From Deltaproteobacteria bacterium (lineage in GTDB: Bacteria; Desulfobacterota; Desulfobulbia; Desulfobulbales; Desulfurivibrionaceae): 63,517 nt of DNA. Positions within the stretch are counted from its first letter, which is position 1. Every line of letters starts with the position of its first letter. Location: positions 1-63,517 of the forward strand of contig JAPLJG010000027.1 in assembly GCA_026388735.1 (NCBI GenBank). The letters run 5' to 3'. Under the pieces are notes generated by a model that saw only the letters and a program-made list of their open reading frames with translations, had not been told where the DNA came from and searched no databases. Positions 8,663 through 39,230 of the stretch are shown here, one piece after another. The translations under genes and the position numbers were made by a program.

Positions 8663-8681
8663 GATTGTTCCTCCTCGTGGG

Positions 8682-8963
8682 TTATTTGAGCAAATCGTCC
8701 ACTTCTTCCTTGCCCTTGGCAAGTTCGTGCTGCTGCTCCTTGTCCTTTTTCAGGAGCAAGGCCTGAAACTCGCCAACGTGGGTTTTTTCCTCCCGGGCAA
8801 CATCGAGAAAAATTATTTTCAGATCCTTGCCCGTTGCAAGGTTCGCCATTTGCTCATACAGATTGATCGCATCCAGTTCGGCAATAATGGCTGCCCTCAG
8901 AAGCTCTTTGTCAACATCGGCCTTTGAAATTTTTTCCAGATTAAAAGGAATAGTCGCCAGCAT
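8682..8963 (-). CDS. ferritin-like protein of the encapsulated-ferritin type
   Basis: This 93-residue protein carries the short ferritin-like signature LRAAIIAELDAINLYEQMA (about 22-40) and the second iron-ligand stretch DVAREEKTHVGEF (about 54-66), with the E...ExxH ligand pattern. This is the half-ferritin type that assembles into rings and is found as encapsulin cargo or fused to encapsulin in some archaea. I see no encapsulin shell gene in the window and no clear cargo-targeting peptide in its short charged C terminus. Its likely role is iron oxidation/storage or peroxide defence beside the redox genes. The selenoprotein gene starts 19 bases downstream. Confidence 0.82.
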   Translation of the reverse strand: MLATIPFNLEKISKADVDKELLRAAIIAELDAINLYEQMANLATGKDLKIIFLDVAREEKTHVGEFQALLLKKDKEQQHELAKGKEEVDDLLK

Positions 8964-11387: not shown

Positions 11388-14300
11388 TTAATTGCGATCT
11401 GGCTTGCGCGGACGATGGGGCACCACGTAGACCTTCTGTGGCGTCTCAGACGGAACTATAACCGCCGGCACCTCGGATCGCCCTGGGTCCATTACTGGTA
11501 GGAGGGCTAAAATGGTGGACGGCATTGCAACGCCAAAATCTATCACTTCGAGATTCAAACCAGCCAGTTGGGCGGAGAAAATATCACCCGGACGCGTTAC
11601 CATCGTGTCGGCCATCGCCGTCGAAGTCTGCTCTTCAATAGGTACTGTTTGCATCAGCGGCATCACTGTCAGTGCGCCATCGATATAGCTGATCGTGTAG
11701 TTGTTGGCGTTGAATGTGCCCCCGGTAGCATTGCTTGGTGTAACTGCATACAGACTATCCGCCGCGCCGAACGCCGCGCTCTTAGAGCTCATCATGGTGA
11801 CGCTGCCGACGGTTTCACCGTTCATCAGGCCCACCGTAGTGAACGCGGACAAGATAGAATCCTGGCCGTAGATTTTCGTGGCATTGGACGCCGTCACTTT
11901 AAGGCTAACAGGTATCACTGTCAGCACGCCGTTGATATAGTGAAGAGTATAGTTGGATGGAGTGAAAGTACCGCCGGTCGCGTTGCTTGGCGTAATCGCA
12001 TACGGGCTGCCTGCCACTGCGGCGGTCGGCGCTGCTCCCGCACTCGCCAGGCTCACGCTGCCAACCGTTTCGCTGTTTTTCAGCCCGGTGATGCTGAATT
12101 CGCTATCGGTGAAATTCACCGTGCTGCCGTAGGTCTTGCTGATGTTGTTCGCCACAATGCCAAGCGGCGCTGGGATCACGTTCAAAACACCATTGGCATA
12201 GCTGATGGTGTAGTTAGACGAACTCTGTCCAGATGGAATGATGGTGTAATTACCTGCGTTGACCGCGCCCTGCGAGCTGCCACCATAGACCAGCGTTCCG
12301 GTCAAGGAAGCGGCGGTGTCTGAACCCTGGAAGCCGGTGTAAGTCACGCCGTTGCCCCCGCTGTAGGCCAGACCGTCATAGGTCTTGACCGCCGGGTTGG
12401 CCGCAATGGCCAGTCCGCCTGCGATCACACCCAGCGAGCCGTTAACATAGCTGATGGTATAGTTGTTGGGGTTGAAGGTACCGCCGGTAGCGGCACTGGC
12501 CGTGATAGCGTAGGGGCTGCCTGCCACACCGGCGGTCGAGACCGCACCCGGACTCGCCAAGCTCACGCTCCCGACCGTCTCGCTGTGTTTCAGCCCGGTG
12601 CTGGTGAACTCGCTGCCGGTAAAACTCACTGTATCGCCAAAGATTTTGCTGCTGCTGTTTGCCGCGATGCCAAGCGCAGCCCGGGCAACAGCCAGGGTGC
12701 CGTCAACATAGCTGATGTTGTAGTTTGTCGAGCTCTGGCCGGACGGGGTAATGTTGTAACTGCCCGCGTTGACCGCCCCCTGCGAATTGCCGCCGTAGGC
12801 CAGCGCTCCGCTCAGGGAAGCGGCAGTATCCGAGCCCTGGAAGCCGCTGTAGGTTACCCCATTACCCCCGCTGAAGGCCAGACCGTCGTAGACCTTGGCC
12901 GCTGCGTTTGCCGCAACGCCCAGCGCTGCGGGAGTGATACCCAGGGTGCCGTTGGCGTAATTGATGATATAGCCCTGCTGGTTGGAGTTCAGACCGCTTG
13001 GCGTAATGGCGTAACTGCCAACCGAGGTGCCACCGCCGCTAGTACTCACCGAGCCGAACAGGTAGGCGAGGTTGTAAGTGCTTGGGGAATAGGTCACCCC
13101 GCTCCCACCGGTTTGTGCGGCGCCGTTATAAGTCGTGGTGGCGCTGTTCGCCGTCACTGTCAGCGGCGTCATGAACGGCCGCAGGAGCGGGTAGGTTATT
13201 CCGTTATACATCACCCAGGTGTTGGTGAAATCCCAATTCGGATTGACGCTGCCGTTGGGCCCAGTGGCGGATGTAAAATTGGCCTGCTGCTTCATGTCGC
13301 TGGTGACCATGCTCAGGCCACCGCCCGCTGACCCCGCCTGGCCCGTGGTCGTTAAGTCCCAGAAACTATTGGTGGCTGTTCCGGCGACCCCTACCAGACC
13401 GCCTTTGGTGCCGCCACCGCCAACGATGCCCGCCGCATAGCTGGTAGTGACTGGGCCCCCGCTGGTCCCAATCAGGCCGCCGGTCCCGCCACCGGTACCA
13501 CTGACGTTGCCTGTGGCGTAAGTGTCGCTGACAACGCTAGCTCCGGTGACACCCAACAAGCCACCGGTGTCGGCGCCTCCGCCAGTTACGTTCCCCGAGG
13601 CGTAGCTCTTGCTGATGGTCCCTGTTGTGTTGCTCCCCACCAGTCCACCGGTGCTGGCTCCGGCACCGATCACGTTGCCTCGAGCGTAGCTGTTGGTGAT
13701 CGCGCCTGTTGTGTTGACTCCAACCAACCCACCGGTGCCGGCATTACTCCCGTTCACGGTGCCCGTGGTAAAGCTGTTGGTGATCGTGCCTGTTCCGTTA
13801 ACTCCCACCAACCCGCCGGTGCCGGAAGCGCCGCTCACGGTGCCCGTGTTGTAGCTGTTGGTGACCGTGCTGCCATCGCCGTTGTTTCCGATCAGCCCGC
13901 CGGTGCCGGCAGCGCCGGTCACGGTGCCGCCGACCAGCCCAACGTTGTTGAACGTCGAGGTGGTACCGGTAGACCCAAACAGGCCGGCGTTATCTGCTCC
14001 TGAATTGACTTTGAGACCGGTAATGGTGTGACCCAAGCCGTCAAACGTGCCGTTGAATTCGGTGCCTGTAACCCCGATCGGCACAAAGCCAATTCCAGCC
14101 CATGTGGTGCTGGTCGCGCTTGCATCGATATTGCTGCCAAGCGCGTAATTTCCGGCCAGTTTGAGGGCGCTGCCTCTCATGCCCTGCAAATCGGTGCCGG
14201 TGGTGCTGCCTTCCGCACCCAGGCTAGTGATGACGGTGTAGGGAAGAGTGTTGATGGTGAGGAAGCCCGCGCCGGAACGGGGTGTCACCCCGTTCGCCTG

Positions 14301-15710
14301 GAAGAAGTCCACCCGCCCGATAAAGCCGTCCGCATTCATGCCCACCTTGACGGCACCGGCGGTGGAGGTCATAACCAATAACGACGCGTCGGAGGCGGTC
14401 ATCACGGCATTGATGTTGATGTCGCGTGCGGCAGTCAGCGTAAGCGTATTGGCGCTCCAATGCACTGCATCGTTGACATTGATGTCGCCGGGACCCGCAG
14501 TAGAACCCTGGGTGGATAAAATAGTGACGGAACTGCTGCCTAGCGCCGTTGATAGTGTACTTCCCGAGACATCTCCTGAAGGAGATGCAGGAGGCCCACC
14601 GGCGATGGTGCCCGCGGCGCCAGCGCCAATAGTGAAGTCCACTGGGTCGATCAGCCAGTTGCCGCTGCTGCCTTGTGCAGACTGAGTGGTTACGATGGTG
14701 TTGTCGGCGACTTTGACGTGCGCCGCCGAGGTTTCAATGAAGCCGCCATCGCCGCCATGCGGCGCCGAGGCATCCAGGGTGCCGCCGACGTTCACAGTGC
14801 CGCTTTGCATGTCGCCCATCAGCTTGATGGTGCCGTTATGGTTCTCGATGGTCTGCGCCTGGATCACGCCGGTGTTGTTCACCGCGCTCTGCAGGAGATT
14901 TCCCGCCGCCTGCGCGGTCAACACGACTTGTCCGCCGTCGGCCAAGATCAGGCCGCCGTTCTGTGCCAGCGCGTTCACCGCGCCCTGGTTCACCATGACA
15001 TTGAGCAGACCGTCGCCGGCCACGTCGAGGGTGACTACGTTACCTGCGGCAAGCGCCACCGTACCGAGTCTAGCCGAGATCACACCTTCATTGTTGACGT
15101 TGGCGCCCAGCAGGGCCACATAGCCGCCGTCGGCATTGATCGAGCCCTGGTTGAGGACCGTGCCGGTGCCTGCGCCGACAAAATTGTATCTGCCCGCCAT
15201 AAAGTCGCCATCGGTGATGTCAAGGGTGGAAGCTACCAGCCCACCCACGTTCACTTGCGCCCCTTGGCCGAACAGGATGCCGTTGGGATTCAGCAGGAAC
15301 ACTTTGCCGTTGGCCGACATACTGCCCAAGATGCTTGAAGGATCTGGACCCAACACCCGGTTGAGTGTTGTCGAGTTGCTGTTGGGTTGCACAAACCGGA
15401 CCGCTTCTGCTTGTCCGATATTGAAGCCCTGCCAGTTGATCGCCGCGTTCGGCGTCGACTGGGTGATGGTTGTAATGCCCGCACCACTGCTGATACCGAC
15501 GCTACCTGCCGTTACGACCCCACCCGCTGGCAGGGCATAGGCATTCGAACCAAACGCCAGCATCAGCGAAACCGCCAACCCTTTCAGGACGAAGCCCCCC
15601 CCTCCCACCATCGTTTCGCCAGAGGATTTCTTCCCGCTTTTGACTATTTCGGAAACGGGGACAAAAATGCCAGTCTTTTCACTCCAGATCAATCGGTATA
15701 TGCGGTTCAT
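11388..15710 (-). CDS. two-partner secretion exoprotein (TpsA, haemagglutination-activity domain)
   Basis: This 1440-residue surface or secreted protein opens with an extended signal peptide (ESPR): MNRIYRLIWSEKTG, then a basic stretch and the hydrophobic core VLKGLAVSLMLAFG. The TPS/haemagglutination-activity domain follows (about 60-330, with the LNPNGILFGQGAQVNVGGLVA stretch and repeated NG-V-A turns). Next are seven or so GLUG-type repeats (about 575-785) and six MBG-type repeats (about 845-1350). The C terminus is a proline/basic tail. It lies 62 bases downstream of its transporter gene tpsB, the standard TPS order. The ESPR is typical of gamma- and betaproteobacterial TpsA and unusual in this background, pointing to transfer. 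The ligand is unknown; adhesion is likely. Confidence 0.93.
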   Translation of the reverse strand: MNRIYRLIWSEKTGIFVPVSEIVKSGKKSSGETMVGGGGFVLKGLAVSLMLAFGSNAYALPAGGVVTAGSVGISSGAGITTITQSTPNAAINWQGFNIGQAEAVRFVQPNSNSTTLNRVLGPDPSSILGSMSANGKVFLLNPNGILFGQGAQVNVGGLVASTLDITDGDFMAGRYNFVGAGTGTVLNQGSINADGGYVALLGANVNNEGVISARLGTVALAAGNVVTLDVAGDGLLNVMVNQGAVNALAQNGGLILADGGQVVLTAQAAGNLLQSAVNNTGVIQAQTIENHNGTIKLMGDMQSGTVNVGGTLDASAPHGGDGGFIETSAAHVKVADNTIVTTQSAQGSSGNWLIDPVDFTIGAGAAGTIAGGPPASPSGDVSGSTLSTALGSSSVTILSTQGSTAGPGDINVNDAVHWSANTLTLTAARDININAVMTASDASLLVMTSTAGAVKVGMNADGFIGRVDFFQANGVTPRSGAGFLTINTLPYTVITSLGAEGSTTGTDLQGMRGSALKLAGNYALGSNIDASATSTTWAGIGFVPIGVTGTEFNGTFDGLGHTITGLKVNSGADNAGLFGSTGTTSTFNNVGLVGGTVTGAAGTGGLIGNNGDGSTVTNSYNTGTVSGASGTGGLVGVNGTGTITNSFTTGTVNGSNAGTGGLVGVNTTGAITNSYARGNVIGAGASTGGLVGSNTTGTISKSYASGNVTGGGADTGGLLGVTGASVVSDTYATGNVSGTGGGTGGLIGTSGGPVTTSYAAGIVGGGGTKGGLVGVAGTATNSFWDLTTTGQAGSAGGGLSMVTSDMKQQANFTSATGPNGSVNPNWDFTNTWVMYNGITYPLLRPFMTPLTVTANSATTTYNGAAQTGGSGVTYSPSTYNLAYLFGSVSTSGGGTSVGSYAITPSGLNSNQQGYIINYANGTLGITPAALGVAANAAAKVYDGLAFSGGNGVTYSGFQGSDTAASLSGALAYGGNSQGAVNAGSYNITPSGQSSTNYNISYVDGTLAVARAALGIAANSSSKIFGDTVSFTGSEFTSTGLKHSETVGSVSLASPGAVSTAGVAGSPYAITASAATGGTFNPNNYTISYVNGSLGVIAGGLAIAANPAVKTYDGLAYSGGNGVTYTGFQGSDTAASLTGTLVYGGSSQGAVNAGNYTIIPSGQSSSNYTISYANGVLNVIPAPLGIVANNISKTYGSTVNFTDSEFSITGLKNSETVGSVSLASAGAAPTAAVAGSPYAITPSNATGGTFTPSNYTLHYINGVLTVIPVSLKVTASNATKIYGQDSILSAFTTVGLMNGETVGSVTMMSSKSAAFGAADSLYAVTPSNATGGTFNANNYTISYIDGALTVMPLMQTVPIEEQTSTAMADTMVTRPGDIFSAQLAGLNLEVIDFGVAMPSTILALLPVMDPGRSEVPAVIVPSETPQKVYVVPHRPRKPDRN
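11661..13167 (-). repeat. six MBG-type repeats in tpsA, two alternating kinds
   Basis: Six units of 75-85 residues each begin with a pattern like L-x-[IV]-x-A-N-x-x-x-K and end with N-Y-x-[IL]-x-Y-x-[ND]-G-x-L. Units 2 and 4 (NGVTY-GFQGSDTAAS) match each other closely, as do units 3 and 5 (GLK-SETVGSVSLAS), so a two-unit block of about 0.5 kb was duplicated in tandem. This is a likely site for copy-number change. Confidence 0.85.
13357..13995 (-). repeat. GLUG-type repeats in tpsA
   Basis: About seven units follow the pattern TGGLVG-N-x-G-x-I-x-N-S-Y-x-x-G-x-V-x-G. These glycine-rich repeats are known from secreted adhesins and would extend the beta-helix. They sit between the secretion domain and the MBG repeats. 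Confidence 0.85.
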
Positions 15711-26935: not shown

Positions 26936-27973
26936 ATGATCTTCAAGGTCTTCAAAAAACAGGAGCTCGCCCGACTGTATGAGCTGCTGGCCGTCAACGT
27001 CATTGTCGGCCCCGTGGCCAAAGGCAACGACCGCAACGGCAAGCCCCTGTATGATTTCGATGTGGTCTACGATTTTGATGAACTTGCCCTTGACTACACC
27101 CAAACGGTGCATTCGCCCAAACGTTTTGTCCTGCCCTACCAGGAAACCTTGTCCACGTTTGCCATAACCCGTGAGGGTTGGGAAAAGCATGTCGACATCA
27201 ATGTCTACCGGCCCCTGGTCTTCTTCGGCATGCACGCCTGCGACATCAATGCTCTGAACAAGCTGGATCTGGTTTTGGCGCAAAGCACCTACCCAAACCC
27301 ATACTACATGGGCAAACGGAAAAATCTCTTCATCATCGGGATCGACTGCAACCCCGAGCCCCAATGTTTCTGCCGCTCCATGGGCACAGACTCCGCCATC
27401 CACGGCTTTGACCTGTTTCTCACCGATCTGGGGGGCAAATATTTTGCGGAGATTCTTTCTGCCACAGCCTTTGACCTGCTGAGCCAAATCAAATGCACGG
27501 ACCCGAGCGCCAAAGAACTTGCCCTCTACAAACACACCACCAAAGAGAAAAGCACACGCTACACCGCCACGGTGGATACCTCGGATCTCACCAAGATCCT
27601 CGACCTTGAATTTGAATCAACTGCTTGGGATGCCTGGGGCGAAAAATGCCTTTCCTGCGGCACCTGCGCCAACGTCTGCCCCACCTGTTACTGCTATGGC
27701 GTTGAAGAGCATGTCGATCTCGACCTGCAACACGCCAACAAAACCAAATCTCTGCACTCCTGCAACCTCATCGACTTTGCCAAGGTGGCTGGCGGGCACA
27801 ACTTCCGGCCCACAAGCGCCAGCCGCCTAAAATACAGGTACTACCACAAACATCGCGGCTTCGTGGAGGCCTTTGAAGAGTCCCTCTGTGTTGGCTGCGG
27901 TCGCTGCGGGGCAGCCTGTCTTGCCGACATCACCCCCCCGGCAGTCATCGCCAGCGTCCGGGGCAAGGAGTAA
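26936..27973 (+). CDS. hydB: [NiFe] hydrogenase group 3b-type, beta subunit (4Fe-4S)
   Basis: This is the iron-sulfur subunit of a cytoplasmic NAD(P)-linked sulfhydrogenase. The 345 residues include two C-terminal [4Fe-4S] ferredoxin motifs, CLSCGTCANVCP (from about 238) and CVGCGRCGAAC (from about 318), after an N-terminal domain with further cysteines (HACDIN, CNPEPQCFC). It should relay electrons between the small hydrogenase subunit and the flavin subunit. A GAGGAGG site is about 6 bases before the ATG. It is the first gene of a compact four-gene operon. Confidence 0.93.
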   Translation: MIFKVFKKQELARLYELLAVNVIVGPVAKGNDRNGKPLYDFDVVYDFDELALDYTQTVHSPKRFVLPYQETLSTFAITREGWEKHVDINVYRPLVFFGMHACDINALNKLDLVLAQSTYPNPYYMGKRKNLFIIGIDCNPEPQCFCRSMGTDSAIHGFDLFLTDLGGKYFAEILSATAFDLLSQIKCTDPSAKELALYKHTTKEKSTRYTATVDTSDLTKILDLEFESTAWDAWGEKCLSCGTCANVCPTCYCYGVEEHVDLDLQHANKTKSLHSCNLIDFAKVAGGHNFRPTSASRLKYRYYHKHRGFVEAFEESLCVGCGRCGAACLADITPPAVIASVRGKE

Positions 27974-27976
27974 GCC

Positions 27977-28879
27977 ATGCAGAACAAACTCGCTTTTCTC
28001 GACATCCTCGGTCAGACCGCAGGCTCGCACCGCAAGCAAGACCCGGACAGTTTCGAGTACACCCTGCCGGCCGAGATCACCAGCATCTACCCGCTCACCG
28101 CCACGGAAAAACTCTACCAGATCCAGATCATCGACCCCGACCAGCGAAACCGCTTCTCCTTTAAGCCCGGCCAATTCGTGATGCTGGAGCTGCCGGGAAT
28201 CGGCGAAGCGCCCTTTTCCATCTCCTCTTCCCCGGTGCGGCACGGCGATCTTGAGCTGTGCATCCGGGCGGTGGGCAATTTCACCAATTTCCTGGACCGG
28301 GTGGAGCGGGGCACCAGGATAGGGATAAGCGGCCCGTTCGGCACCTCTTTCCCTCTGGAAAAGATGCAGGGGCAGGACATCCTGCTCATCGGCGGGGGCC
28401 TGGGCATCGTGCCCCTGCGCTCACCCCTGCTGGCCGTGCTGGAAAACCGGAGCCGATACGGGCGGGTGGACATCATGTACGGCGCCAAGACCCCGGCGGA
28501 GCTGCTCTTCACCTACCAATACGAGGAATGGAAACGCTTCGACATCAACCTCGGCATCACGGTGGACCGGGCGGACAAAAACTGGGAGGGCCGCACCGGT
28601 CTGATCACCGAACTTTTGCAGGAACGCATCGCCCAGACAGCAAGCCTGCGCGAGAACACCTACGCCATCGTCTGCGGCCCGCCGGTGATGTTCCATTTCG
28701 TGTGCAAGATGCTGACCGAGGCTGGACTGCCCATGCAGAAGATGTTCGTTTCCCTGGAACGCCGCATGCACTGCGGCCGAGGCAAATGCTGCCGTTGCAA
28801 CATCGGCTCGACCTACACCTGTCTGGACGGCCCGGTCTTTGACTACTGGTCAGTGATGAACCTCAAGGAGGCGATCTGA
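27977..28879 (+). CDS. hydG: [NiFe] hydrogenase group 3b-type, gamma subunit (FAD/NAD(P), 2Fe-2S)
   Basis: This 300-residue flavoprotein has a ferredoxin-reductase-like fold: an FAD-binding barrel (residues about 35-125, PGQFVMLELPGIGEAPFS), an NAD(P)-binding domain (LIGGGLGIVPLRS) and a C-terminal [2Fe-2S] site with the closely spaced cysteines of MHCGRGKCCRCNIGS. It is the site where the hydrogenase exchanges electrons with NAD(P)H, or reduces sulfur in archaeal relatives. It starts three bases after hydB with GGAG upstream. Confidence 0.93.
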   Translation: MQNKLAFLDILGQTAGSHRKQDPDSFEYTLPAEITSIYPLTATEKLYQIQIIDPDQRNRFSFKPGQFVMLELPGIGEAPFSISSSPVRHGDLELCIRAVGNFTNFLDRVERGTRIGISGPFGTSFPLEKMQGQDILLIGGGLGIVPLRSPLLAVLENRSRYGRVDIMYGAKTPAELLFTYQYEEWKRFDINLGITVDRADKNWEGRTGLITELLQERIAQTASLRENTYAIVCGPPVMFHFVCKMLTEAGLPMQKMFVSLERRMHCGRGKCCRCNIGSTYTCLDGPVFDYWSVMNLKEAI

Positions 28880-28880
28880 G

Positions 28881-29699
28881 ATGAGCCCACAACTCTCCTA
28901 CCTTGGCGTCCCCCTTGCCCGGCCAAAGGTCGGGTTCTTCGAGCTCAGCTCCTGCGAAGGCTGCCAGCTACAGCTTTTGAACAACGAGGCCACCCTGCTC
29001 GATTTTCTCAACCTGGTGGAGATCGTCAACTTTCGCGAAGGCATGAGCGAACGCGCCGACACCTACGACATCGCCTTTGTCGAGGGCAGCGTCACCCGCA
29101 AGGATGAAATCGCCCGCCTCACCGCGATCCGCAAGAACGCCAAGATCCTGGTCGCCCTTGGCTCCTGCGCCTGCTTTGGCGGGGTCAACCAACTGAAAAA
29201 CCGCTTCCGCGATCTGGACTGGGTCAAGAAAGAGGTGTACGGCGACTTCCCCATTGAGACCATGGAGGTACATCCTCTCAAGGATTTTGTTCAGGTGGAC
29301 CTCGAGATCTTCGGCTGCCCCATCAAAAAGGAAGAGGTCGAGAGAATCGTCACCGATCTTGTGGTGGGCAAGGCGGTGCACCACCCGGAATACCCGGTGT
29401 GCATGGAGTGCAAGGCCAATGAGAACATCTGCCTGTTCGAACTCGGCGAGCCCTGCCTCGGCCCAATCACCCGGGCCGGCTGCGATTCCTGGTGCACCAG
29501 TAACCGCAGGGGCTGCTGGGGTTGCCGTGGTCCGGCGGAAGGGGCCAACTTCAAACAATTGGAAGAGATCATGCATACCTACGGCTTTAGCAGCGAGACC
29601 ATCCTCGACCGCCTGGAATGTTTTGGCGGCTTTGCCTCTTTCGCTGACGCAGTCCGCTCCCCAAACAAAAAGACCCCGGCCAGGAGGAAAAAATCATGA
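28881..29699 (+). CDS. hydD: [NiFe] hydrogenase group 3b-type, small subunit
   Basis: The small subunit carries the iron-sulfur relay from the NiFe centre. In 272 residues it has the proximal-cluster motifs ELSSCEGCQLQLL (about 15-27) and LGSCACFGG, then the later cysteines CMECK, CLGPITRAGCDSWC and GCWGCRGP, enough for three [4Fe-4S] clusters. It has no Tat signal peptide, consistent with a soluble cytoplasmic enzyme. AAGGAGG precedes the ATG, and the stop overlaps hydA by four bases. Confidence 0.94.
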   Translation: MSPQLSYLGVPLARPKVGFFELSSCEGCQLQLLNNEATLLDFLNLVEIVNFREGMSERADTYDIAFVEGSVTRKDEIARLTAIRKNAKILVALGSCACFGGVNQLKNRFRDLDWVKKEVYGDFPIETMEVHPLKDFVQVDLEIFGCPIKKEEVERIVTDLVVGKAVHHPEYPVCMECKANENICLFELGEPCLGPITRAGCDSWCTSNRRGCWGCRGPAEGANFKQLEEIMHTYGFSSETILDRLECFGGFASFADAVRSPNKKTPARRKKS

Positions 29700-30970
29700 A
29701 GCTCTCCTGCGAAGTCGATGTCCACCACCTGACCAGGGTGGAAGGCCACGGCAACATCAACATCAGCATCAAGAACGGGGTGGTCAAAAAGGCGCAATGG
29801 GAGGTCATCGAGACCCCGCGTTTTTTTGAGGCCATGCTGGTGGGCAAGCACTGGGAGAATGCGCCCTATATCTGCGGGCGAATCTGCGGCATCTGTTCCA
29901 TCGGCCATACCCTGGCCAGCATCCGGGCCGTGGAAAACGCCTTTGGCATCACCCCCTCGACCCAGACCGCAGACCTCCGGCTGCTGCTCAAACACATGGA
30001 AACCCTGCAAAGCCATATCCTGCACCTGTACTTCCTGGCCGCCCCGGATTTCCTGGGCGTGGGCAGCGTGCTGCCCCTGGCCAAAACCCACCCGGAGGTG
30101 GTGCAGCGAGCCTTGCGCCTCAAGCTGCTGGCCAACGATGCCTGCGACATCATCGGCGGCAGACGCCTGCACCCGACCCGAACCGTGGTGGGGGGCTTCA
30201 CCATGCTCCCGGAAAAAGGCGAGCTGGAAAAAATCCGCCAGCGGCTGATGGCCTCGATTCCTGATCTCCTGGCCTCGGCGGAACTGTTTAAAACCTTTGC
30301 CATCCCCGACTTCAGCCGGGAAACGGAATTCGTCTCCCTCAAGGGCGAAATCAACTATCCCTTTATCGGCGGCGGGCTTGTTTCAACGGATGGGGTCGTG
30401 AAAAAAGAGCACCAATACCGGGCCATGACCAATGAATACTGCAAGAAAGGCTTTACCTCCAAGTTGAGCAAATTATCCCGCCCCTCCTTTGCCGTGGGCG
30501 CCCTGGCCAGACTAAACAACAATTTCACCATGCTCCACCCCACCGCACGGGAAATCTCCAAATTTCTGGGCCTTATGCCGGTGAATCACAACCCGTACAT
30601 GAGCAATGTGGCCCAGTTGGTGGAATGCGTCCAGGTGGTGCTCGATTCCGTGCAGCTCATCGACATCCTGCTGGGCAGCCCCTGGCAGGAGGCGCGCCAG
30701 CCGGTAAAGGCGAAACAAGGCGAAGGGGTCGGCGCAGTGGAGGTGCCCCGGGGCATCCTGTATCATTATTATAAATTCGACAAAGACGGCAAGGTTATCA
30801 AGGCTGATTGCGTCATCCCCACCAGCCAGAACCACGCCAACATCCTGCACGACATCGAGGCTCTGGCCAACCAGTACGCCAAAAACGGGAAAAAAGACCG
30901 GGAGATCGAGCTATTGGCCGAGATGCTGGTGCGGGCCTACGATCCCTGCATCTCCTGCTCGGTGCATTAG
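29696..30970 (+). CDS. hydA: [NiFe] hydrogenase group 3b-type, large catalytic subunit without C-terminal extension
   Basis: The 424-residue large subunit holds the NiFe site through two CxxC pairs: N-terminal GRICGICSIGH (about 60-70) and C-terminal DPCISCSVH. The gene stops directly after the terminal His, the residue after which maturation proteases usually cut. Group 3b relatives in Pyrococcus carry a few extra residues there that are removed. This enzyme therefore appears to be made without the removable tail and may mature without an endopeptidase. ATGA overlap with hydD. No maturation genes (hypABCDEF, hycI/frxA) occur in the window. Confidence 0.94.
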   Translation: MKLSCEVDVHHLTRVEGHGNINISIKNGVVKKAQWEVIETPRFFEAMLVGKHWENAPYICGRICGICSIGHTLASIRAVENAFGITPSTQTADLRLLLKHMETLQSHILHLYFLAAPDFLGVGSVLPLAKTHPEVVQRALRLKLLANDACDIIGGRRLHPTRTVVGGFTMLPEKGELEKIRQRLMASIPDLLASAELFKTFAIPDFSRETEFVSLKGEINYPFIGGGLVSTDGVVKKEHQYRAMTNEYCKKGFTSKLSKLSRPSFAVGALARLNNNFTMLHPTAREISKFLGLMPVNHNPYMSNVAQLVECVQVVLDSVQLIDILLGSPWQEARQPVKAKQGEGVGAVEVPRGILYHYYKFDKDGKVIKADCVIPTSQNHANILHDIEALANQYAKNGKKDREIELLAEMLVRAYDPCISCSVH

Positions 30971-31852: not shown

Positions 31853-32719
31853 ATGATCACAATCATCGGCATAGTAGTTGTTTTAGGGTCGGTCATCGGC
31901 GGCTACGCCATGGGAAAAGGCAACTTCTCTGTTCTGTTCCAGCCTGCCGAGGTAATCATCATCTTTGGCGCAGCCATCGGCAGCCTGATTATTTCCTCGC
32001 CGACCAAATCGTTGAAGGTCATTGTCGGACATCTCGGAGGCATCTTTGCCGACTCCCATATGAGCAAGGCCCATTATCTGGAACTGCTGCTACTCATGAA
32101 TGCCGTCTTCTTCAAGATCAAGAAAGAAGGGTTGGTCGCCATCGAGTCCGACATCGAGAACCATGAGGCCAGCCCCCTGTTCCAAAAATACCCCAACATC
32201 ATGAAAGACCGCGAAGCAGCCGAATTCATCTGCGACACGGTCCGCACCATGCTCAGCGCCAATTACCCAGCCTACGAATTGGACAACCTCATGGAGATCG
32301 ACTTGGAGGCCAATCAGCATGAAAGGATGCTGCCCGCCCACAGCATCACCAAAATAGGCGATGCCCTGCCCGGCCTGGGCATTGTTGCGGCGGTTCTCGG
32401 CATTGTTATCACCATGGGATACATCAACGAATCAGCCGAGGTTTTGGGCCACCATATCGGCGCAGCCCTGGTCGGCACCTTTTTTGGCGTACTTGCCTGT
32501 TATGGCTTTGTCGGGCCCATGGGAACCAAACTGGAACACCATGCCCTTGAGCGCGAAACCTATTTGCGGGTGATCAAAACCTCCCTGTTGGCCGCCTATT
32601 CCACCAGTTTCATGGTGCAGTTCGCCGTTGAGGCAGGTCGCCGCGCCATCCCAGGAGACGACCGTCCCTCCTTTGCCGAGACCGAGGAGGCCATCAAGAA
32701 ATGGAAGACAAAAGCATAA
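31853..32719 (+). CDS. motA: flagellar motor stator protein MotA
   Basis: MotA forms the ion-conducting stator pentamer around MotB. The 288-residue protein has four membrane segments (residues about 1-20, 33-52, 170-190, 203-223), a cytoplasmic loop with the charged residues that touch FliG, and the conserved GDALPGLGIVAAVLGIVITMG. The length fits the PomA/MotA group. It overlaps motB by 19 bases. No other flagellar genes are near, as is common for a detached motAB pair. Confidence 0.95.
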   Translation: MITIIGIVVVLGSVIGGYAMGKGNFSVLFQPAEVIIIFGAAIGSLIISSPTKSLKVIVGHLGGIFADSHMSKAHYLELLLLMNAVFFKIKKEGLVAIESDIENHEASPLFQKYPNIMKDREAAEFICDTVRTMLSANYPAYELDNLMEIDLEANQHERMLPAHSITKIGDALPGLGIVAAVLGIVITMGYINESAEVLGHHIGAALVGTFFGVLACYGFVGPMGTKLEHHALERETYLRVIKTSLLAAYSTSFMVQFAVEAGRRAIPGDDRPSFAETEEAIKKWKTKA

Positions 32720-33618
32720 TCATAAAGAAGGTCAAGAAGGTCCAGGGTGGCGGCGCTCACGGCGGCAGTTGGAAGGTGGCCTTTGCCGACTTCATGACCG
32801 GAATGATGGCTTTTTTCCTTCTCATGTGGCTGGTCAACATGACCACCAAGCCGCAGAAGGAGCAGCTTGCCCATTATTTCCAGGAGTACAGCATCTTTGC
32901 CGAGGGCGGCGCAGGCGGAAGCGCAGAGATGATCGCCACGGAGCAAGCCCAGACCGAGGCCCAGATCACCGTCACCCAAGCCCCGGCAGCCGCCGGGTCA
33001 ACAACGGAAGGCGAAGGAACCGCCGCAGGCCTGGAACGACTCAAAGACCAACTGCAAAAGGAAATCGAGCAACGGCTTACCGATCTCAAAGATCAGGTGC
33101 ATATTGAGGTGGTCGAGGGCGGAGTCAAGGTGGACATCATGGACAAAGAGGGAAACCCCATGTTCCCTCTGGGCAGTACGACCCTCACCGAAAGCGGCCA
33201 GAAAATCCTGAAGGTGCTCTGCGACAACATCAAGAACACCTCAAACCGCATTGAAATCGAAGGCCATACCGATGCGGTGACCTACGCTAAAAAAGAATTC
33301 GGCAACTGGGAACTCTCCACCTCCAGGGCCTCAGCCGCGCGGCTTGAGGTGGAAAAAAACGGCATCCCCTCCAACCGCCTCCTCCGGGTCTCGGGCTATG
33401 CCGCCACGCAACCGATCATCAAGGAAAACCCTTTTGACCCCCGCAACCGGAGAATAAGCCTGCGCCTCTACCCCGATAAAACAGGCACGTCTCCTGCCCA
33501 AACGCAACCACAGCCCCCGACCCAGGTTCACCCGCCGCAACCGCAGGCCCCGGCTCAGGCTACTCCCCAAGTCACGCCGCAGGGCGCACCCCTGGTTCAG
33601 CCCGCACGGATGAAATAG
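32701..33618 (+). CDS. motB: flagellar motor stator protein MotB
   Basis: MotB anchors the stator to peptidoglycan and carries the ion-binding aspartate. Here this is D30 in KVAFADFMTGMMAFFLLMWL, the single membrane helix. Residues about 175-258 are the OmpA-like peptidoglycan-binding domain (IEGHTDAV, DPRNRRISLRL). The last 45 residues are rich in Pro, Gln and Thr, a low-complexity tail absent from most MotB proteins. 305 residues, overlapping motA by 19 bases. Confidence 0.95.
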   Translation: MEDKSIIIKKVKKVQGGGAHGGSWKVAFADFMTGMMAFFLLMWLVNMTTKPQKEQLAHYFQEYSIFAEGGAGGSAEMIATEQAQTEAQITVTQAPAAAGSTTEGEGTAAGLERLKDQLQKEIEQRLTDLKDQVHIEVVEGGVKVDIMDKEGNPMFPLGSTTLTESGQKILKVLCDNIKNTSNRIEIEGHTDAVTYAKKEFGNWELSTSRASAARLEVEKNGIPSNRLLRVSGYAATQPIIKENPFDPRNRRISLRLYPDKTGTSPAQTQPQPPTQVHPPQPQAPAQATPQVTPQGAPLVQPARMK

Positions 33619-33646: not shown

Positions 33647-33967
33647 TCAGCAGCAGGAACCGCCGTCCGGTTTGTCCTTAAGCGAACAACAGGCTTCGCT
33701 GCTGCGGCCCAGCATGGTATTGAATACCGCCTGGGCGCAGCCCACTCCGCTTTGCACCCAAATAGCCTCAACCGGGCAATTCATCATGCAGGCCCCGCAC
33801 TCCATGCAGGCGTCCGGCTCGCTGATCCGCACCTTCTTACCCGGCCCCATGACAAAAACCTCCTGCGGACAAACCTCCAGACACATGCCGCAGCCGATAC
33901 AGGCATCCTGATCAAGTCGCAGGGTGGCAACCCCTTTGAGATATAACCGCCTTCCCATTTCCTTCAT
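33647..33967 (-). CDS. hgcB: HgcB, ferredoxin partner for mercury methylation
   Basis: HgcB is the dicluster ferredoxin that supplies electrons to the corrinoid protein HgcA in Hg(II) methylation. The 106 residues have two [4Fe-4S] motifs, CIGCGMCLEVCP (23-34) and CMECGACMMNCP (54-65), the latter matching the HgcB signature C-[MI]-ECGA. Two vicinal cysteine pairs (C93-C94 and the terminal C105-C106) fit the C-terminal thiols thought to pass Hg(II) to HgcA. The start at 33967 has GGAGG 5 bases upstream and its ATG overlaps the hgcA stop by four bases. The downstream convergent gene is motB. Confidence 0.94.
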   Translation of the reverse strand: MKEMGRRLYLKGVATLRLDQDACIGCGMCLEVCPQEVFVMGPGKKVRISEPDACMECGACMMNCPVEAIWVQSGVGCAQAVFNTMLGRSSEACCSLKDKPDGGSCC

Positions 33968-35022
33968 TGCAGCCTCCTTGCCCAGACCAGCAACAGCAGC
34001 CCGCATAATGCCGCGACAACTTGAAGCGGCACGGCAAGACGCATTTCCTTCTTTACCCCGGAAAGCGAGGTGTAGGTAGAGGCCCCGGTGAATTCCAGGC
34101 CGAGAAAAGAGGCAATGGCCGGAATGAGCAGCAGCCAAGCCAAACCGGCGAGACCGTTGTCCGAGGTTCCTGACCGGGAGAAAAAGACCGCGATAAATGC
34201 CAGGGCGGCCATAAGTCCAGCCGCCCCCCCCTTCAGGGAAAAGGCGCGGCCAGGCAGCACCGGCAGCAACAGGGGGGTCAACACCGTCCCGGCAACGACG
34301 CCGCTCCACAGGCCGGCCATTGTCCAGCCACCGCCATGCGCCCGCACATTTTCCCAGAATGAGGCCGGGCCAAACAGGCCGCTCGCCCCACACAGCACGG
34401 CGGACAGGGGCAGCGCCCATTTGCAGGCGATGACGAGTTCCACCGGAACCAACACCGCCCGTTCCGGCAGGGAAAAGGTCTTGCGCCGCATTGCCGGGGT
34501 GGCCTGCATCCCACAAACCAAAAACTCTGGAAGATGTCGGGCCAGCACCGGTCCATACACCACGGCAAACCCGCTCTGTTGCTTCACCGCATGCGCCGCG
34601 ATACCCGACGCGCCGAGTTGGGGCACAACAAGCCTGCGATGCCGGACCAGTTGAACAAGTCGGCTCGCACCCACCTGGGCACAGAGCGCGGCAGTGCCAA
34701 AGGTTCCTTTGCCAGCCGCGCACCAGACATTGATCCCGTTGGTGTCAAGGACCAGAACCCAGGCGTCCTGCCCGGTCAGGGCTGCACGCAGATGGTCGAA
34801 ACTCAACTTGTAATTGGCCGTGACCAGGATGGGCGAATCCTCCTGGGGGGTGCCAACGGCATACAGGCCAGGTTCAACGGTATATTGCATCCGCCCAAGG
34901 CCCAGGCGAACCCGAAGCGCTCCCCAGCGATCCCGCCCGGCAAGCACGGTGGCAACCTGCGGCACCGGGCCCACCGGAGTCTCAATCTTTCCGATCACAA
35001 AGGCTTGCTCTGCTATGGCCAC
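33964..35022 (-). CDS. hgcA: HgcA, corrinoid protein of mercury methylation
   Basis: HgcA transfers a methyl group from its corrinoid cofactor to Hg(II). The diagnostic cap-helix motif is intact: NVWCAAGKGTFGT at about 98-110, with C101 the expected lower-axial cobalt ligand. Residues 1 to about 175 form the cobalamin-binding domain; five membrane helices follow (about 215-350), with the conserved FTGASTYTSLSGVKKEM between the last two. 352 residues is normal. An AGGAG site precedes the ATG at 35022. hgcB follows with an ATGA overlap. Together the two genes are the accepted marker of methylmercury production in anaerobes. Confidence 0.96.
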   Translation of the reverse strand: MAIAEQAFVIGKIETPVGPVPQVATVLAGRDRWGALRVRLGLGRMQYTVEPGLYAVGTPQEDSPILVTANYKLSFDHLRAALTGQDAWVLVLDTNGINVWCAAGKGTFGTAALCAQVGASRLVQLVRHRRLVVPQLGASGIAAHAVKQQSGFAVVYGPVLARHLPEFLVCGMQATPAMRRKTFSLPERAVLVPVELVIACKWALPLSAVLCGASGLFGPASFWENVRAHGGGWTMAGLWSGVVAGTVLTPLLLPVLPGRAFSLKGGAAGLMAALAFIAVFFSRSGTSDNGLAGLAWLLLIPAIASFLGLEFTGASTYTSLSGVKKEMRLAVPLQVVAALCGLLLLVWARRLQ

Positions 35023-35405
35023 TCCTGCCCGAGGAGGAATCTTCGGGCCTCAACAACTTTGCTGGCCACCGGGCAAAATACCTTCAGTCTGTTCCATACG
35101 GCCTTGCCTCCACCTTTTTTTGATGTGTATAGTCCTTCAACCTAGCTCCTCAGGGGATTACTCGTCAAGCCTGACAAGCAATCGAAGTGCATATTCTAAT
35201 AAAATTCGTCATCCGTTCTGATTTGAAAACTGCCATCAATTCTTGTTTCAATACCATCCATTCTTTTTGATTTCAAACCGTTGTAGCTTCAACAGATGAT
35301 CTTCCACTCCAAAAGCGGGCACATCAATTCGGGTTGTTGTTGCGTGCAGCGAAACATGCTAGACTCCGATACGCTATATCCACCCACCCAAAAGGATTCT
35401 GTTCC
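35023..35405. other. divergent intergenic region between hgcA and the chromate-family transporter gene
   Basis: About 380 bases, AT-rich between 35160 and 35330. It must hold the promoters of both divergent genes. I see no coding sequence, no ArsR-type operator palindrome and no riboswitch fold that I would defend. Confidence 0.5.
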
Positions 35406-36584
35406 ATGCACGAGATCAAAGAACAACCGGCCCTACGCACCCCATCACTGGGCCGGTTGTTCTCCTCTTTCCTGCGGCTGGGGACAACCGCCTTCGGCGG
35501 CCCAGCCATGATTGCCCACATTCGCGAACTGGCGGTTGAGCGGGAACGCTGGCTCGACAAGGAAATTTTTCGGGATGGCGTGGCCCTCTGCCAAGCGATT
35601 CCCGGTGCAACCGCCATGCAGGTCGCGGCCTATGTCGGCCTCCGAACTCGGGGAGTGCGGGGGGCCATCACAGGCTACCTCGGCTTCGGCCTGCCAGCCT
35701 TCCTTCTCATGACGGCGCTTTCGGCGCTCTACGCCCGGATGCATGAAATGCCCGCCGTGGTTGCGGTTTTCAGCGGCCTGCAAGCCATTATTGTCGCCAT
35801 TGTCGCCAACGCCGCCATCTCCTTTGGTCGAAATTCCCTTACCAACTGGCAACATGGCGTCGTGGCTCTTGTAGCGGCGGGATTGTTTGAACTTGCGGTG
35901 CATCCGGTCCTTATCCTGAGCCTTGCTGCACTGCTAAGCCTGCTGCTGAATAGCGGGCAACCAGCCATACAGCAGGTTGAGTCTCGGACCCACATGCCCT
36001 CCACCACCCTGCCGCTTCTCTTCCTGCTGGGGGCCACCGCTACGGGCTTTGCCCTGCTTGCTTTCTTTCGCTACGACCTCGCGCAACTGGCCCTGCTCCT
36101 GGCCAGGATCGACCTCATGGCCTTTGGCGGCGGTTTTGCCTCGGTGCCCCTCCTGTTCCATGAAATCGTTGAGACCCGCGCCTGGCTGGATGCCTCGACC
36201 TTTCTGGACGGCATCGCCCTGGGCCAGCTCACCCCAGGCCCCATCGTGATCACGGCAACCTTTGTCGGCTACCTGCTCCATGGCCTTACCGGCGCGTTCA
36301 TCGCCACAGTGGCCATGTTCCTTCCCTCTCTGCTGCTGCTGATTGGAACCGCCCCCTACTTTACCCGGCTACACGCATCGCCCCGATTCAACCGGGCCAT
36401 TGACGGCGTTCTTTGCTCCTTTGTCGGCCTGCTCTGCACAGTTACCATCCGTCTATCCCTGCATGTTCATTGGGACTGGTCCCACTTGCTCCTTGCCGCC
36501 ACCGCCTTCGCTGCCTTGTTCAAGAAAATTGATCTCCTTTGGGTGGTTCTCGCAGGCGCCACGGTGGCCATGTTTCTTTTTTAA
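35406..36584 (+). CDS. chrA: chromate transporter family protein (ChrA, two-domain)
   Basis: ChrA-family (CHR) permeases expel chromate, though many members are untested. The 392-residue protein contains the duplicated CHR domain: half one begins FLRLGTTAFGGPAMIAHI (about 24-41) and half two ARIDLMAFGGGFASVPLL. The GQLTPGPIVITATFVGY signature is in the second half. About 10-12 membrane segments. I chose the ATG at 35406, with AAGGA upstream; an earlier ATG adds 24 residues without homology. It is divergent from hgcA. Confidence 0.88.
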   Translation: MHEIKEQPALRTPSLGRLFSSFLRLGTTAFGGPAMIAHIRELAVERERWLDKEIFRDGVALCQAIPGATAMQVAAYVGLRTRGVRGAITGYLGFGLPAFLLMTALSALYARMHEMPAVVAVFSGLQAIIVAIVANAAISFGRNSLTNWQHGVVALVAAGLFELAVHPVLILSLAALLSLLLNSGQPAIQQVESRTHMPSTTLPLLFLLGATATGFALLAFFRYDLAQLALLLARIDLMAFGGGFASVPLLFHEIVETRAWLDASTFLDGIALGQLTPGPIVITATFVGYLLHGLTGAFIATVAMFLPSLLLLIGTAPYFTRLHASPRFNRAIDGVLCSFVGLLCTVTIRLSLHVHWDWSHLLLAATAFAALFKKIDLLWVVLAGATVAMFLF

Positions 36585-37068: not shown

Positions 37069-38031
37069 TTAATACCCCAAAAAATCAAGAATGTATTTGG
37101 TCGCCGTGAGGACCATAATCCCTGCCAACATCCACTTGATGGCCCTGGCCGGAACAAATTTCTGACAACGCGCCCCGAGATACATACCCACCATTCCCCC
37201 TAAACCAAAGAGGATTCCCAGTAACCAATCCGGAGCCACTGAAAGGTGTGGATAAAACGGGGCAATGGCTTGATAAAAGGCAACGCCGGCAACCGAAGTG
37301 ACGAAGGTCCCCATCAGGGCCGCTCCGGCTACGATGTAGACCGACAGCCCGAAGAAGGTGACAAAAAAAGGGGCGATAATGGAACCGCCGCCGATACCAT
37401 AGACCCCTCCCACAATGCCGACAATGAAGCTCAAAAGGAAAATGCCCCAGAATGAAACGTCAAAAGATTCACCATGGAACGTGAAGCCCAGTCGCCTCAA
37501 GTTGAAATGCGTAACCGTTACCGGCCGCAAATGTTCTCCTCTGGAAATTCCGGTTCCGACACTCTTTGAACCGGAATTTCTCATCATCTCCTGAAACCGC
37601 TTTTCGCTGTTGGTTTTGCTGTCATTGCTGGTGTTTTTTTTCAGTAAGTCACGCACCATTCTAAGACCGATATACAGGAGGACCGCAGCGACAAAAAGTT
37701 TGAAATGCTTTGGGTTCGGCAGATAGGCCACCCGCACGATGGCCCCGATAAAAACACCGGGTAACGTGCCGAAGACTACGATCCAGGTAAGGGGCCACAC
37801 CATCCGCCCCTCGCGCCAATAGCGATACACCCCACTGGGGATGGCCACTATGTTGAACACTTGGTTGGTAGCGCTGACCGAGGGGTTGGTATAACCGAGA
37901 AAGGACATCTGGAACGGCAAAAGCAGAAAGGCGCCAGACACGCCACACATGGAGGTGAAAAAAGAGATCGCGAAGGCGACCAGAGGTGGTATCCAGGGAG
38001 CGACTTCGATTCCGGCGGTTGCAAACAGCAT
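37069..38031 (-). CDS. sulfite exporter TauE/SafE family permease
   Basis: TauE/SafE permeases export sulfite, sulfoacetate or related organosulfonates. The 320 residues include about eight membrane segments and both inverted-repeat signatures: FTSMCGVSGAFLLLPF in the N-terminal half and GGVYGIGGGSIIAPF in the C-terminal half. A hydrophilic loop of about 60 residues (near 135-190) separates them, longer than in most members. I chose the ATG at 38031 because GGAGG lies exactly 5 bases upstream; earlier ATGs lack a site. The substrate is unknown, but export of a sulfur oxyanion would suit a sulfur-cycling anaerobe. Confidence 0.88.
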   Translation of the reverse strand: MLFATAGIEVAPWIPPLVAFAISFFTSMCGVSGAFLLLPFQMSFLGYTNPSVSATNQVFNIVAIPSGVYRYWREGRMVWPLTWIVVFGTLPGVFIGAIVRVAYLPNPKHFKLFVAAVLLYIGLRMVRDLLKKNTSNDSKTNSEKRFQEMMRNSGSKSVGTGISRGEHLRPVTVTHFNLRRLGFTFHGESFDVSFWGIFLLSFIVGIVGGVYGIGGGSIIAPFFVTFFGLSVYIVAGAALMGTFVTSVAGVAFYQAIAPFYPHLSVAPDWLLGILFGLGGMVGMYLGARCQKFVPARAIKWMLAGIMVLTATKYILDFLGY

Positions 38032-38183
38032 CAGGGCCTCCATGAAAAATTGCGCTTGACATGAGTGACACGAAAAGAATAACTTACGTGTCAACGTAGT
38101 AAATTTCTCAACACATTGTCAAGGTCTTCCATGAATCCCCTGAAAAAAAATCATCGGCTCCATCCCGGTCGACGGCAACAATA

Positions 38184-39230
38184 ATGAACCACGGGCGGAT
38201 CATTTCGGCTCCTGACAGCAGCCAATGCCTGGATAGCGATCAGCTCCAGCGGCTGGAACAATCCTTCCGTGAATGGGCCGAGGGCTCGACCCGCAACGAT
38301 GTGCGCCAGTCCCGCCGCCGCATTGTGCTTATCTTCCTGTTGATCCGTTACACGGGGGGTAAGTTAAACGAGGTTCTGGCCCTTGATCCGTTTGTCGACC
38401 TCGATTGCGACCAGCAAACGGTTTTTTTCCGGAGCACCGACCCAGGCCAAGAACCGGGGCAGAGGGAGGTGCAGATTTCGACCACCCTCTGCCAGGAAAT
38501 TCAATCGGCGCTCAGCGATCCAGAGTTCAGGGATTCCTTGCAGAAACTGTTTGAGATTGATCCGGCCTTTGTGCGCCGCAAATTCTACGAGCGCGCTCGG
38601 GAATGCGGGTTTGACAAGCGATTGGCAGGACCGGAGATGATTCGCAGGGCCCGCGCCGTGGAGCTGATGCAGGGCAACCTGCCGCTGCCAGCAGTACAAA
38701 GGCTCCTGGGCCATTCGACGCCCAATCTGACTTCGGCACACGTTTCCTTTTCCGAAGAGGGAGTTCGGGAGATGACACGGTTCTTCATGGAAAGGGAATC
38801 AACGCGCAAGACCAGCGCACGCAACGCCTTCTTCGGCAAAATCGAGACGATCCGGCGGGGTGACATCCAGAGCCTTGTGAAGTTGATCACTTTCGCTGGC
38901 CACGCCATCACCACGGTGATCACCAATGACAGTCTGCAAGTACTCGGCTTGCGGGAAGGGATGCCAGCGACCGCCGAGGTCAAGGCGCCGTGGGTCATTT
39001 TGCAAAAAGGGGAGGAAAAGCCGGCCTGTAGCGCCGAAAACCGGTGCAAGGGCATAATCGCCCGCAAGACCAAAGGCAGGATCAACACCGAGTACGTGGT
39101 GCGCCTAGCGGACGGGACCGAGCTCTGTTCAATCATTACCGAGGCAAGCGACCGCCGCCTTAATCTTCATGAGGGCGATCTGGTTTGGGCATTCTTCAAT
39201 TGCTTTTCCGTGGTGTTGCATGTCGGGTAA
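38184..39230 (+). CDS. TunR-like regulator: inactive tyrosine-recombinase domain fused to a TOBE domain
   Basis: Residues about 40-215 align with the catalytic domain of tyrosine recombinases (FLLIRYTGGKLNEVLALDP and LPAVQRLLGHSTPNLT), but key residues are changed: the first Arg is Lys, the H-x-x-R box is E-x-x-R, and the Tyr nucleophile position is His. Residues about 218-285 form a molybdate/tungstate-binding TOBE (Mop) domain (SARNAFFGKIETIRRGD, then ITNDSLQVLGLREG), and a second short region with CSAENRC follows. This architecture is known in sulfate reducers as TunR, a tungstate-responsive repressor of Mo/W transport genes. No such transport genes are in the window, so its targets must be elsewhere. 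348 residues. Confidence 0.85.
   Translation: MNHGRIISAPDSSQCLDSDQLQRLEQSFREWAEGSTRNDVRQSRRRIVLIFLLIRYTGGKLNEVLALDPFVDLDCDQQTVFFRSTDPGQEPGQREVQISTTLCQEIQSALSDPEFRDSLQKLFEIDPAFVRRKFYERARECGFDKRLAGPEMIRRARAVELMQGNLPLPAVQRLLGHSTPNLTSAHVSFSEEGVREMTRFFMERESTRKTSARNAFFGKIETIRRGDIQSLVKLITFAGHAITTVITNDSLQVLGLREGMPATAEVKAPWVILQKGEEKPACSAENRCKGIIARKTKGRINTEYVVRLADGTELCSIITEASDRRLNLHEGDLVWAFFNCFSVVLHVG

What the first reader, a model, noticed from the sequence alone, without database searches (positions are those of the whole stretch)
33647..35022. hgcAB mercury-methylation gene pair
HgcA has the diagnostic NVWCAAGKGTF cap helix with its cysteine ligand and five membrane helices; HgcB has CMECGAC plus terminal vicinal cysteines. 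The two genes overlap by four bases. hgcAB is the accepted predictor of methylmercury formation, so the host is probably a mercury methylator. The placement between motAB and a divergent chromate-family transporter, with no ArsR-type regulator, is worth comparing with known loci.
Basis: partly seen in the sequence, partly recalled or inferred. Interest (0 to 1): 0.85.

Follow-up and report, generated by a model that had tools for sequence, protein, structure and literature searches.

The report
Selenocysteine form of mercury-methylation genes hgcAB
The window carries a genuine mercury-methylation gene pair, and its first gene is longer than it looks because an apparent stop codon near its start most likely encodes the selenium amino acid selenocysteine, a form already named in the literature but poorly understood.

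Summary
The hgcAB pair is real. HgcA scores 417 bits against the curated HgcA model (cut-off 275), HgcB 117 (cut-off 99); cap-helix cysteine, five predicted C-terminal membrane helices, two 4Fe-4S motifs, the Cys73-equivalent and the terminal Cys pair are present. It is not a CFeSP/CdhD-type protein.

The frame continues upstream through one TGA (35052-35050), preceded by TGT, to an ATG at 35097 with a GGAGG ribosome site. The TGA aligns with a Cys of Cys-Cys homologues; 37 of 102 readable hgcA loci carry TGA there. A stem-loop follows in 33 of 37 TGA rows, 0 of 33 Cys-Cys rows and 385 of 11100 control codons, with covarying pairs. The genome holds selA, selB and tRNA-Sec. So HgcA here is very probably a selenoprotein with an N-terminal Cys-Sec tail; HgcB is the Cys form.

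Sec-HgcA was reported before (Haft & Gwadz 2023, seen only as cited), so this is a new member of a known kind. What selenium does in mercury methylation is unknown. The motAB side is shared across the genus; the chromate-family transporter is a local insertion.

The parts
33964..35097 (-). hgcA, full length (377 residues, residue 16 by TGA)
35107..35111 (-). GGAGG ribosome-binding site, 9 nt before ATG 35097
   Evidence: read from the sequence
35050..35052 (-). in-frame TGA, most likely selenocysteine (residue 16), preceded by TGT (Cys15)
   Evidence: aligns with Cys of Cys-Cys homologues
35022..35036 (-). SECIS-like stem-loop CUCCU-CGGGC-AGGAG, loop 18 nt after the TGA
34720..34722 (-). cap-helix Cys126 codon (NVWCAAGKGTF)
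33647..33967 (-). hgcB, dicluster ferredoxin of 106 residues; Cys77 (GVGC) is the Cys73-equivalent, Cys105-Cys106 the terminal pair
31853..33618 (+). motA and motB, convergent neighbours
35406..36584 (+). chromate-family transporter, divergent neighbour
37069..38094 (-). TauE/SafE-type transporter

Best explanation
This is a genuine hgcAB mercury-methylation pair of a Desulfobulbales-type bacterium in which HgcA is a selenoprotein. Translation starts at ATG 35097. UGA 35052-35050 is decoded as selenocysteine by SelA, SelB and tRNA-Sec, with the stem-loop at 35036-35022 as the insertion signal. The product has a flexible N-terminal tail with Cys15-Sec16, a corrinoid domain whose cap-helix Cys126 ligates cobalt, and five membrane helices. 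HgcB is the partner ferredoxin that re-reduces the corrinoid and passes Hg(II) and/or CH3Hg+ through Cys77 and its C-terminal Cys pair. Most likely role of the Sec tail: a mobile, very soft ligand that captures or releases Hg(II) or CH3Hg+ near the corrinoid, complementing the Cys tail of HgcB. Shown here: family membership, motifs, TGA/Cys alignment, conserved stem-loop, Sec machinery genes. From literature: corrinoid chemistry, Cys ligand, SAM as methyl donor, role of the HgcB cysteines. Inferred: Sec insertion in the cell, methylation by this host, mercury handling by the tail.
For: HgcA 417.1 bits and HgcB 116.7 bits over equivalog cut-offs. TGA in 37 of 102 readable loci at a nearly constant place, 107 codons before the cap Asn in 30 of 37; in A3 the column of residue 16 is Cys (TGA read as Cys) in at least 90% of 40 rows. 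Stem-loop rule met by 33 of 37 TGA rows, 0 of 33 Cys-Cys rows, 385 of 11100 body codons, and 0.7 rows on average (maximum 4) over 200 shuffles; in 12 rows of one register, of 19, all five pairs form and four covary. Third-position excess (33/38/114) in the eight codons before the TGA among nine genus members. selA 600.1, selB 366.9 and tRNA-Sec 72.5 bits in the own genome, all over cut-off. Literature lists HgcA with motif CU (PMC13188914, table row seen).
Against: No protein-level proof of Sec. The minimum-energy fold of the stretch alone is no better than shuffles (z 0.15 and -0.54) and pairs the stem in a shifted register. The stem-loop rule was written after looking at rows, and 4 of 37 TGA rows fail it. 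Four of 19 genomes with TGA-hgcA lack selB over the cut-off, though all four have selA and three have tRNA-Sec. Some HgcA rows have no N-terminal Cys or Sec, so the tail is not essential to all HgcA. selD was not searched.
Confidence: 0.9

Rival explanations
1. hgcA starts at the GTG 35022 (or another weak start) and the ATG-to-TGA stretch is a separate short leader peptide, perhaps a translational regulator.
For: The annotated-style ORF from GTG 35022 passes the HgcA model from its residue 20 onward; the energy-minimum fold is not exceptional.
Against: The peptide before the TGA lines up with the tail of Cys-Cys homologues in the same frame and at the same distance; GTG 35022 lies in the stem-loop's 3' arm and has no spaced ribosome site of its own; stem-loop in 33 of 37 TGA rows against 0 of 33 Cys-Cys rows.
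Confidence: 0.06
2. The TGA is a sequencing or assembly error or a nonsense mutation in a Cys-Cys HgcA.
For: A single-base change separates TGA from Cys codons; the genome is a 123-contig assembly.
Against: The same TGA is in 37 of 102 loci, including two Desulfacinum type strains, and carries its own stem-loop.
Confidence: 0.01
3. The Sec tail is a redox or structural element (for example keeping cobalt or the HgcB thiols reduced) and does not bind mercury; the native job of HgcAB may be other than mercury methylation.
For: The native substrate is not established; PMC7305189 (passage seen) says methylation is generally not thought to be a mercury detoxification mechanism. The Cys before Sec is missing in 4 of 37 TGA rows, against a strict two-ligand site.
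Against: A single selenolate can still bind CH3Hg+ (established chemistry, recalled); HgcB keeps its mercury-handling cysteines.
Confidence: 0.3
4. The gene is a CFeSP/CdhD-type corrinoid protein.
For: Pfam's broad CdhD model matches it (42.4 bits, cut-off 24.8).
Against: CFeSP gamma model 68.5 bits against a cut-off of 306, HgcA model 417.1; seven CFeSP gamma rows stand apart in the tree; a separate CFeSP gamma at 599.4 bits lies on another contig.
Confidence: 0.01

Closest known systems
Sec-containing HgcA (NF040863, motif CU; Haft & Gwadz 2023 as listed in PMC13188914)
   Same: Same family, same Cys-Sec motif near the N-terminus, TGA aligned with Cys of homologues
   Different: No difference found; the paper itself was not held, so whether this lineage is in it is unknown
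HgcAB of Pseudodesulfovibrio mercurii ND132 (PMC11588087, PMC7305189, passages seen)
   Same: Cap-helix Cys, corrinoid domain plus five membrane helices, HgcB with two cluster motifs, Cys73-equivalent and terminal Cys pair
   Different: Window HgcA has an N-terminal Cys-Sec tail; the ND132 tail was not examined here
Sec-containing HgcB (NF040864, motif GVGU; PMC13188914 table row)
   Same: Same system, Sec at a mercury-handling cysteine
   Different: Window HgcB has Cys there, as do the 97 HgcB tails read here
CFeSP gamma subunit of the Wood-Ljungdahl pathway
   Same: Homologous corrinoid domain
   Different: Scores, tree and membrane domain differ

Membership tests
HgcA | score over the curated equivalog cut-off NF040863 | tested here: met
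   417.1 against 275 bits
HgcA | cap helix N(V/I)WCAAGK with Cys ligand | tested here: met
   NVWCAAGKGTF, Cys126; N, V, W, C invariant in A3
HgcA | corrinoid domain followed by five membrane helices | tested here: met
   model with pLDDT 87.1, five long C-terminal helices
HgcA | mercury methylation by the pair | not testable with these tools
   needs an assay
HgcB | score over NF040864, two CxxCxxCxxxC motifs, Cys73-equivalent, terminal Cys | tested here: met
   116.7 against 99 bits; GVGC and GGSCC
Bacterial selenoprotein (Sec-HgcA) | in-frame TGA aligned with Cys of homologues | tested here: met
Bacterial selenoprotein (Sec-HgcA) | SECIS-like stem-loop 16-37 nt downstream, G in the first two loop positions, stem of 4-16 pairs | tested here: met
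   5 pairs, loop CGGGC, 18 nt; but the energy-minimum fold uses a shifted register
Bacterial selenoprotein (Sec-HgcA) | Sec machinery in the genome | tested here: met
   selA, selB, tRNA-Sec found; selD not searched
Bacterial selenoprotein (Sec-HgcA) | selenium in the protein | not testable with these tools
   needs mass spectrometry or 75Se label
CFeSP gamma / CdhD | score over NF003195 and place in the CFeSP clade | tested here: not met
   68.5 against 306 bits; outside the seven CFeSP rows
HgcAB-like fusion protein (NF043039) | score over the curated cut-off, single fused chain | tested here: not met
   184.7 against 285 bits, two separate genes

The most novel reading that the evidence does not exclude
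The selenolate on HgcA's mobile N-terminal tail is a working ligand for mercury in the methylation cycle, and the single Sec, not the Cys-Sec pair, is the selected element (4 of 37 TGA rows keep Sec without the preceding Cys). If so, a widespread lineage of methylators uses selenium, the element best known for binding mercury, inside the methylating enzyme itself, and methylmercury output could depend on selenium supply.
Probability: 0.3. Interest if true: 0.8.

Novelty: new member of a known kind. Interest (0 to 1): 0.5.

Why it matters
Gene finders that stop at TGA cut the tail off this HgcA and place the start inside the insertion signal, so start sites in gene surveys and expression constructs for such hgcA genes are likely wrong. 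If Sec is inserted, selenium supply is tied directly to a mercury-methylation enzyme in a sediment lineage, which is testable. For the HgcAB field it adds a conserved N-terminal chalcogen tail to the residues worth studying.

Tried and rejected
CFeSP/CdhD identity: rejected. A first tree contained one CFeSP row (L160) read in a wrong frame by my script; it was corrected and L003 and L104 were dropped. Reading HgcB past its C-terminal TGA as a further Sec: rejected, since L011 has TAA at that place. Sec at GVGC of HgcB: not seen in the 97 of 102 loci that gave an HgcB tail, two of them cut short. Whole-stretch RNA folding as proof of SECIS: not informative. Rfam on the window: 0 matches at gathering score. 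Promoter and terminator scans: one site each, at or below chance. Papers naming Desulfurivibrio with hgcA: 1 listed, not read; Desulfacinum with mercury and hgcA: 0. Empty-site reading for G009 rejected: an hgcB remnant sits at its contig edge; motB of G010 and G015 lies at a contig edge; in G007 motB is followed by other genes. The least number of changes between Sec and not-Sec on the tree is 8 over 98 rows; it was not set against shuffles and cannot tell gains from losses.

Rows dropped or labelled loosely: L050-L053 and L093 duplicate L020, L019, L018, L016 or L011 and were left out; L096, L125 and L127 gave no cap motif; L085 and L115 have a TGA of doubtful meaning and were not counted as Sec. 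The label 'CC' is a loose motif in the N-terminal stretch, not always the exact column; 'other' includes L003 (Cys-Cys, but interrupted by a later TGA), rows cut by contig ends such as L008, and rows with Cys-x-Cys. One search used 12 of the 19 TGA rows then in hand, those in one stem register.

Full report
Observation. NCBIfam places both over their curated equivalog cut-offs, HgcA 417.1 bits (275) and HgcB 116.7 (99); the HgcAB-like fusion model (184.7, cut-off 285) and the CFeSP gamma model (68.5, cut-off 306) are not met. Pfam's broad CdhD model does match (42.4, cut-off 24.8), as expected for HgcA, which PMC7305189 calls a subset of that Pfam family. It is the only hgcA over the cut-off in its genome. 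In a tree of 100 HgcA and 7 CFeSP gamma rows the window protein lies among HgcA, nearest a same-genus HgcA at 90% identity. An AlphaFold model from 40 rows has mean pLDDT 87.1, five long C-terminal helices and a disordered first 25 residues. The nearest solved structures by sequence are CFeSP large subunits (4 distinct sequences).

The missed feature. The product begins MEQTEGILPGGQQSC-U-GPKIPPRAG. In the window plus 29 relatives' hgcA loci, 19 have Cys-TGA, 8 have Cys-Cys at the same place and 3 show no such motif, one of these being cut by a contig end. Adding the best 80 named loci of a genome scan gives, after removing 5 duplicates and 3 without a readable cap, 102 loci: 37 TGA, 2 ambiguous, 33 with CC, 30 other. 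The residue before Sec is Cys in 33 of 37, Thr in 2 and Gly in 2, and the distance to the cap Asn is 107 codons in 30 of 37.

The insertion signal. After the TGA lies CUCCU-CGGGC-AGGAG, the loop 18 nt away, which fits the bacterial SECIS model quoted in PMC13188914 (stem 4-16 pairs, loop 3-9 nt, a G in the first two loop positions, 16-37 nt from the UGA; passage seen). In 12 rows of one register all five pairs form in every row and four of five show changes on both sides; 0 to 3 of 500 shuffles reach the observed values. A stricter rule (5 or more pairs with 3 or more G-C, loop of 4-5 nt with GG or GU in its first three positions, 16-24 nt away) is met by 33 of 37 TGA rows, 0 of 33 CC rows, 385 of 11100 body codons of the same genes, and 0.7 rows on average (maximum 4) in 200 shuffles. 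The rule was written after seeing rows, so the controls carry the weight. Against it, the energy-minimum fold of the stretch alone is no better than shuffles and uses a shifted register. In most TGA rows outside the window's own order-level relatives the loop is AGGU, AGUU or AGGC on a stem such as GGCUC/GAGCC. The eight codons before the TGA differ at positions 1/2/3 by 33/38/114 among nine genus members, as coding sequence does.

Machinery. The own genome holds selA, selB and tRNA-Sec over their cut-offs. Of 19 genomes with TGA-hgcA, 15 have selB over the cut-off; the other four (G002, G004, G026, G049) all have selA and three have tRNA-Sec, so assembly gaps are likely. Of 11 genomes with other hgcA forms 8 have selB, so selB alone does not tell the forms apart.

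Neighbourhood. In the genus, hgcA passes the cut-off in 9 of 17 genomes; all 9 are the TGA form. motB lies next to hgcBA in the hgcA-positive genus loci where it was looked for: L050-L053, L153, L154, L157, L158 and the window. G011 and G012 show motB-hgcBA-tetR-TolC, tetR being divergent from hgcA; G008 and G003 show motB then tetR-TolC with no hgcAB between; the window and G005 carry a chromate-family and a TauE-type transporter between hgcA and the TolC gene, in different arrangements. So hgcAB is an optional cassette at a fixed site, and the chromate gene is incidental. PMC7438021 (passages seen) describes ArsR-like and other regulators near hgcAB elsewhere; none was seen among the ten neighbours scanned, but a TetR-family gene is 4.3 kb away in the window.

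Mechanism. From PMC11588087 and PMC7305189 (passages seen): HgcA carries methyl-cobalamin with a Cys as lower ligand, SAM is the methyl donor, HgcB re-reduces cobalt, Cys73 of HgcB is essential and at least one of its C-terminal cysteines is needed for full activity. The window proteins have these residues; HgcB has Cys at the Cys73 place. The added element is a flexible tail with Sec. I think it most likely binds Hg(II) or CH3Hg+ next to the corrinoid (inference, about 0.3 as a working ligand); other roles are open, and some HgcA rows show no N-terminal Cys or Sec.

Prior knowledge. PMC13188914 (passages and table row seen) lists HgcA (NF040863, CU) and HgcB (NF040864, GVGU) as selenoprotein families, citing Haft & Gwadz 2023 and, for HgcA, also Zhang & Gladyshev 2008; PMC11588087 says some homologues may be selenoproteins. 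Haft & Gwadz itself is not held. Paper searches on the topic. So this is a new member of a known kind; I make no claim that the stem-loop or its distribution is unpublished.

Noticed in passing
window 8096-8746, minus strand, TGA at 8563-8561: A thioredoxin-like frame with an in-frame TGA in the context NPN-U-IGC (Sec-x-x-Cys), a second likely selenoprotein gene of the window; weak matches to DsbD and VPGUxxT-type selenoprotein models, below their cut-offs.
   Followed up: partly
window 38184-39230, plus strand: A tyrosine-recombinase-like domain fused to molybdate-binding Mop/TOBE domains, resembling the tungstate-responsive regulators of sulfate reducers (recalled).
   Followed up: no
window 26936-30970, plus strand: A sulfhydrogenase-type NiFe hydrogenase gene set; the large and small subunits match HydA/HydD models below their cut-offs. 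It lies upstream of motAB also in L050-L053.
   Followed up: no
L102 and L107 (Desulfacinum hydrothermale, D. infernum): Named type strains whose hgcA carries the TGA and stem-loop, but Gly, not Cys, before Sec: useful for bench tests.
   Followed up: partly
L030 (G055:C16): A TGA-form hgcA with no hgcB in the 1.5 kb downstream.
   Followed up: no
L003 (G042:C111) and L017 (G012:C19): L003 has a further TGA inside hgcA; L017 has a TGA in hgcB just before the terminal Cys pair. Error, decay or recoding is not decided.
   Followed up: no
window 11388-15710, minus strand: A 1440-residue protein with a filamentous-haemagglutinin-type N-terminal domain.
   Followed up: no
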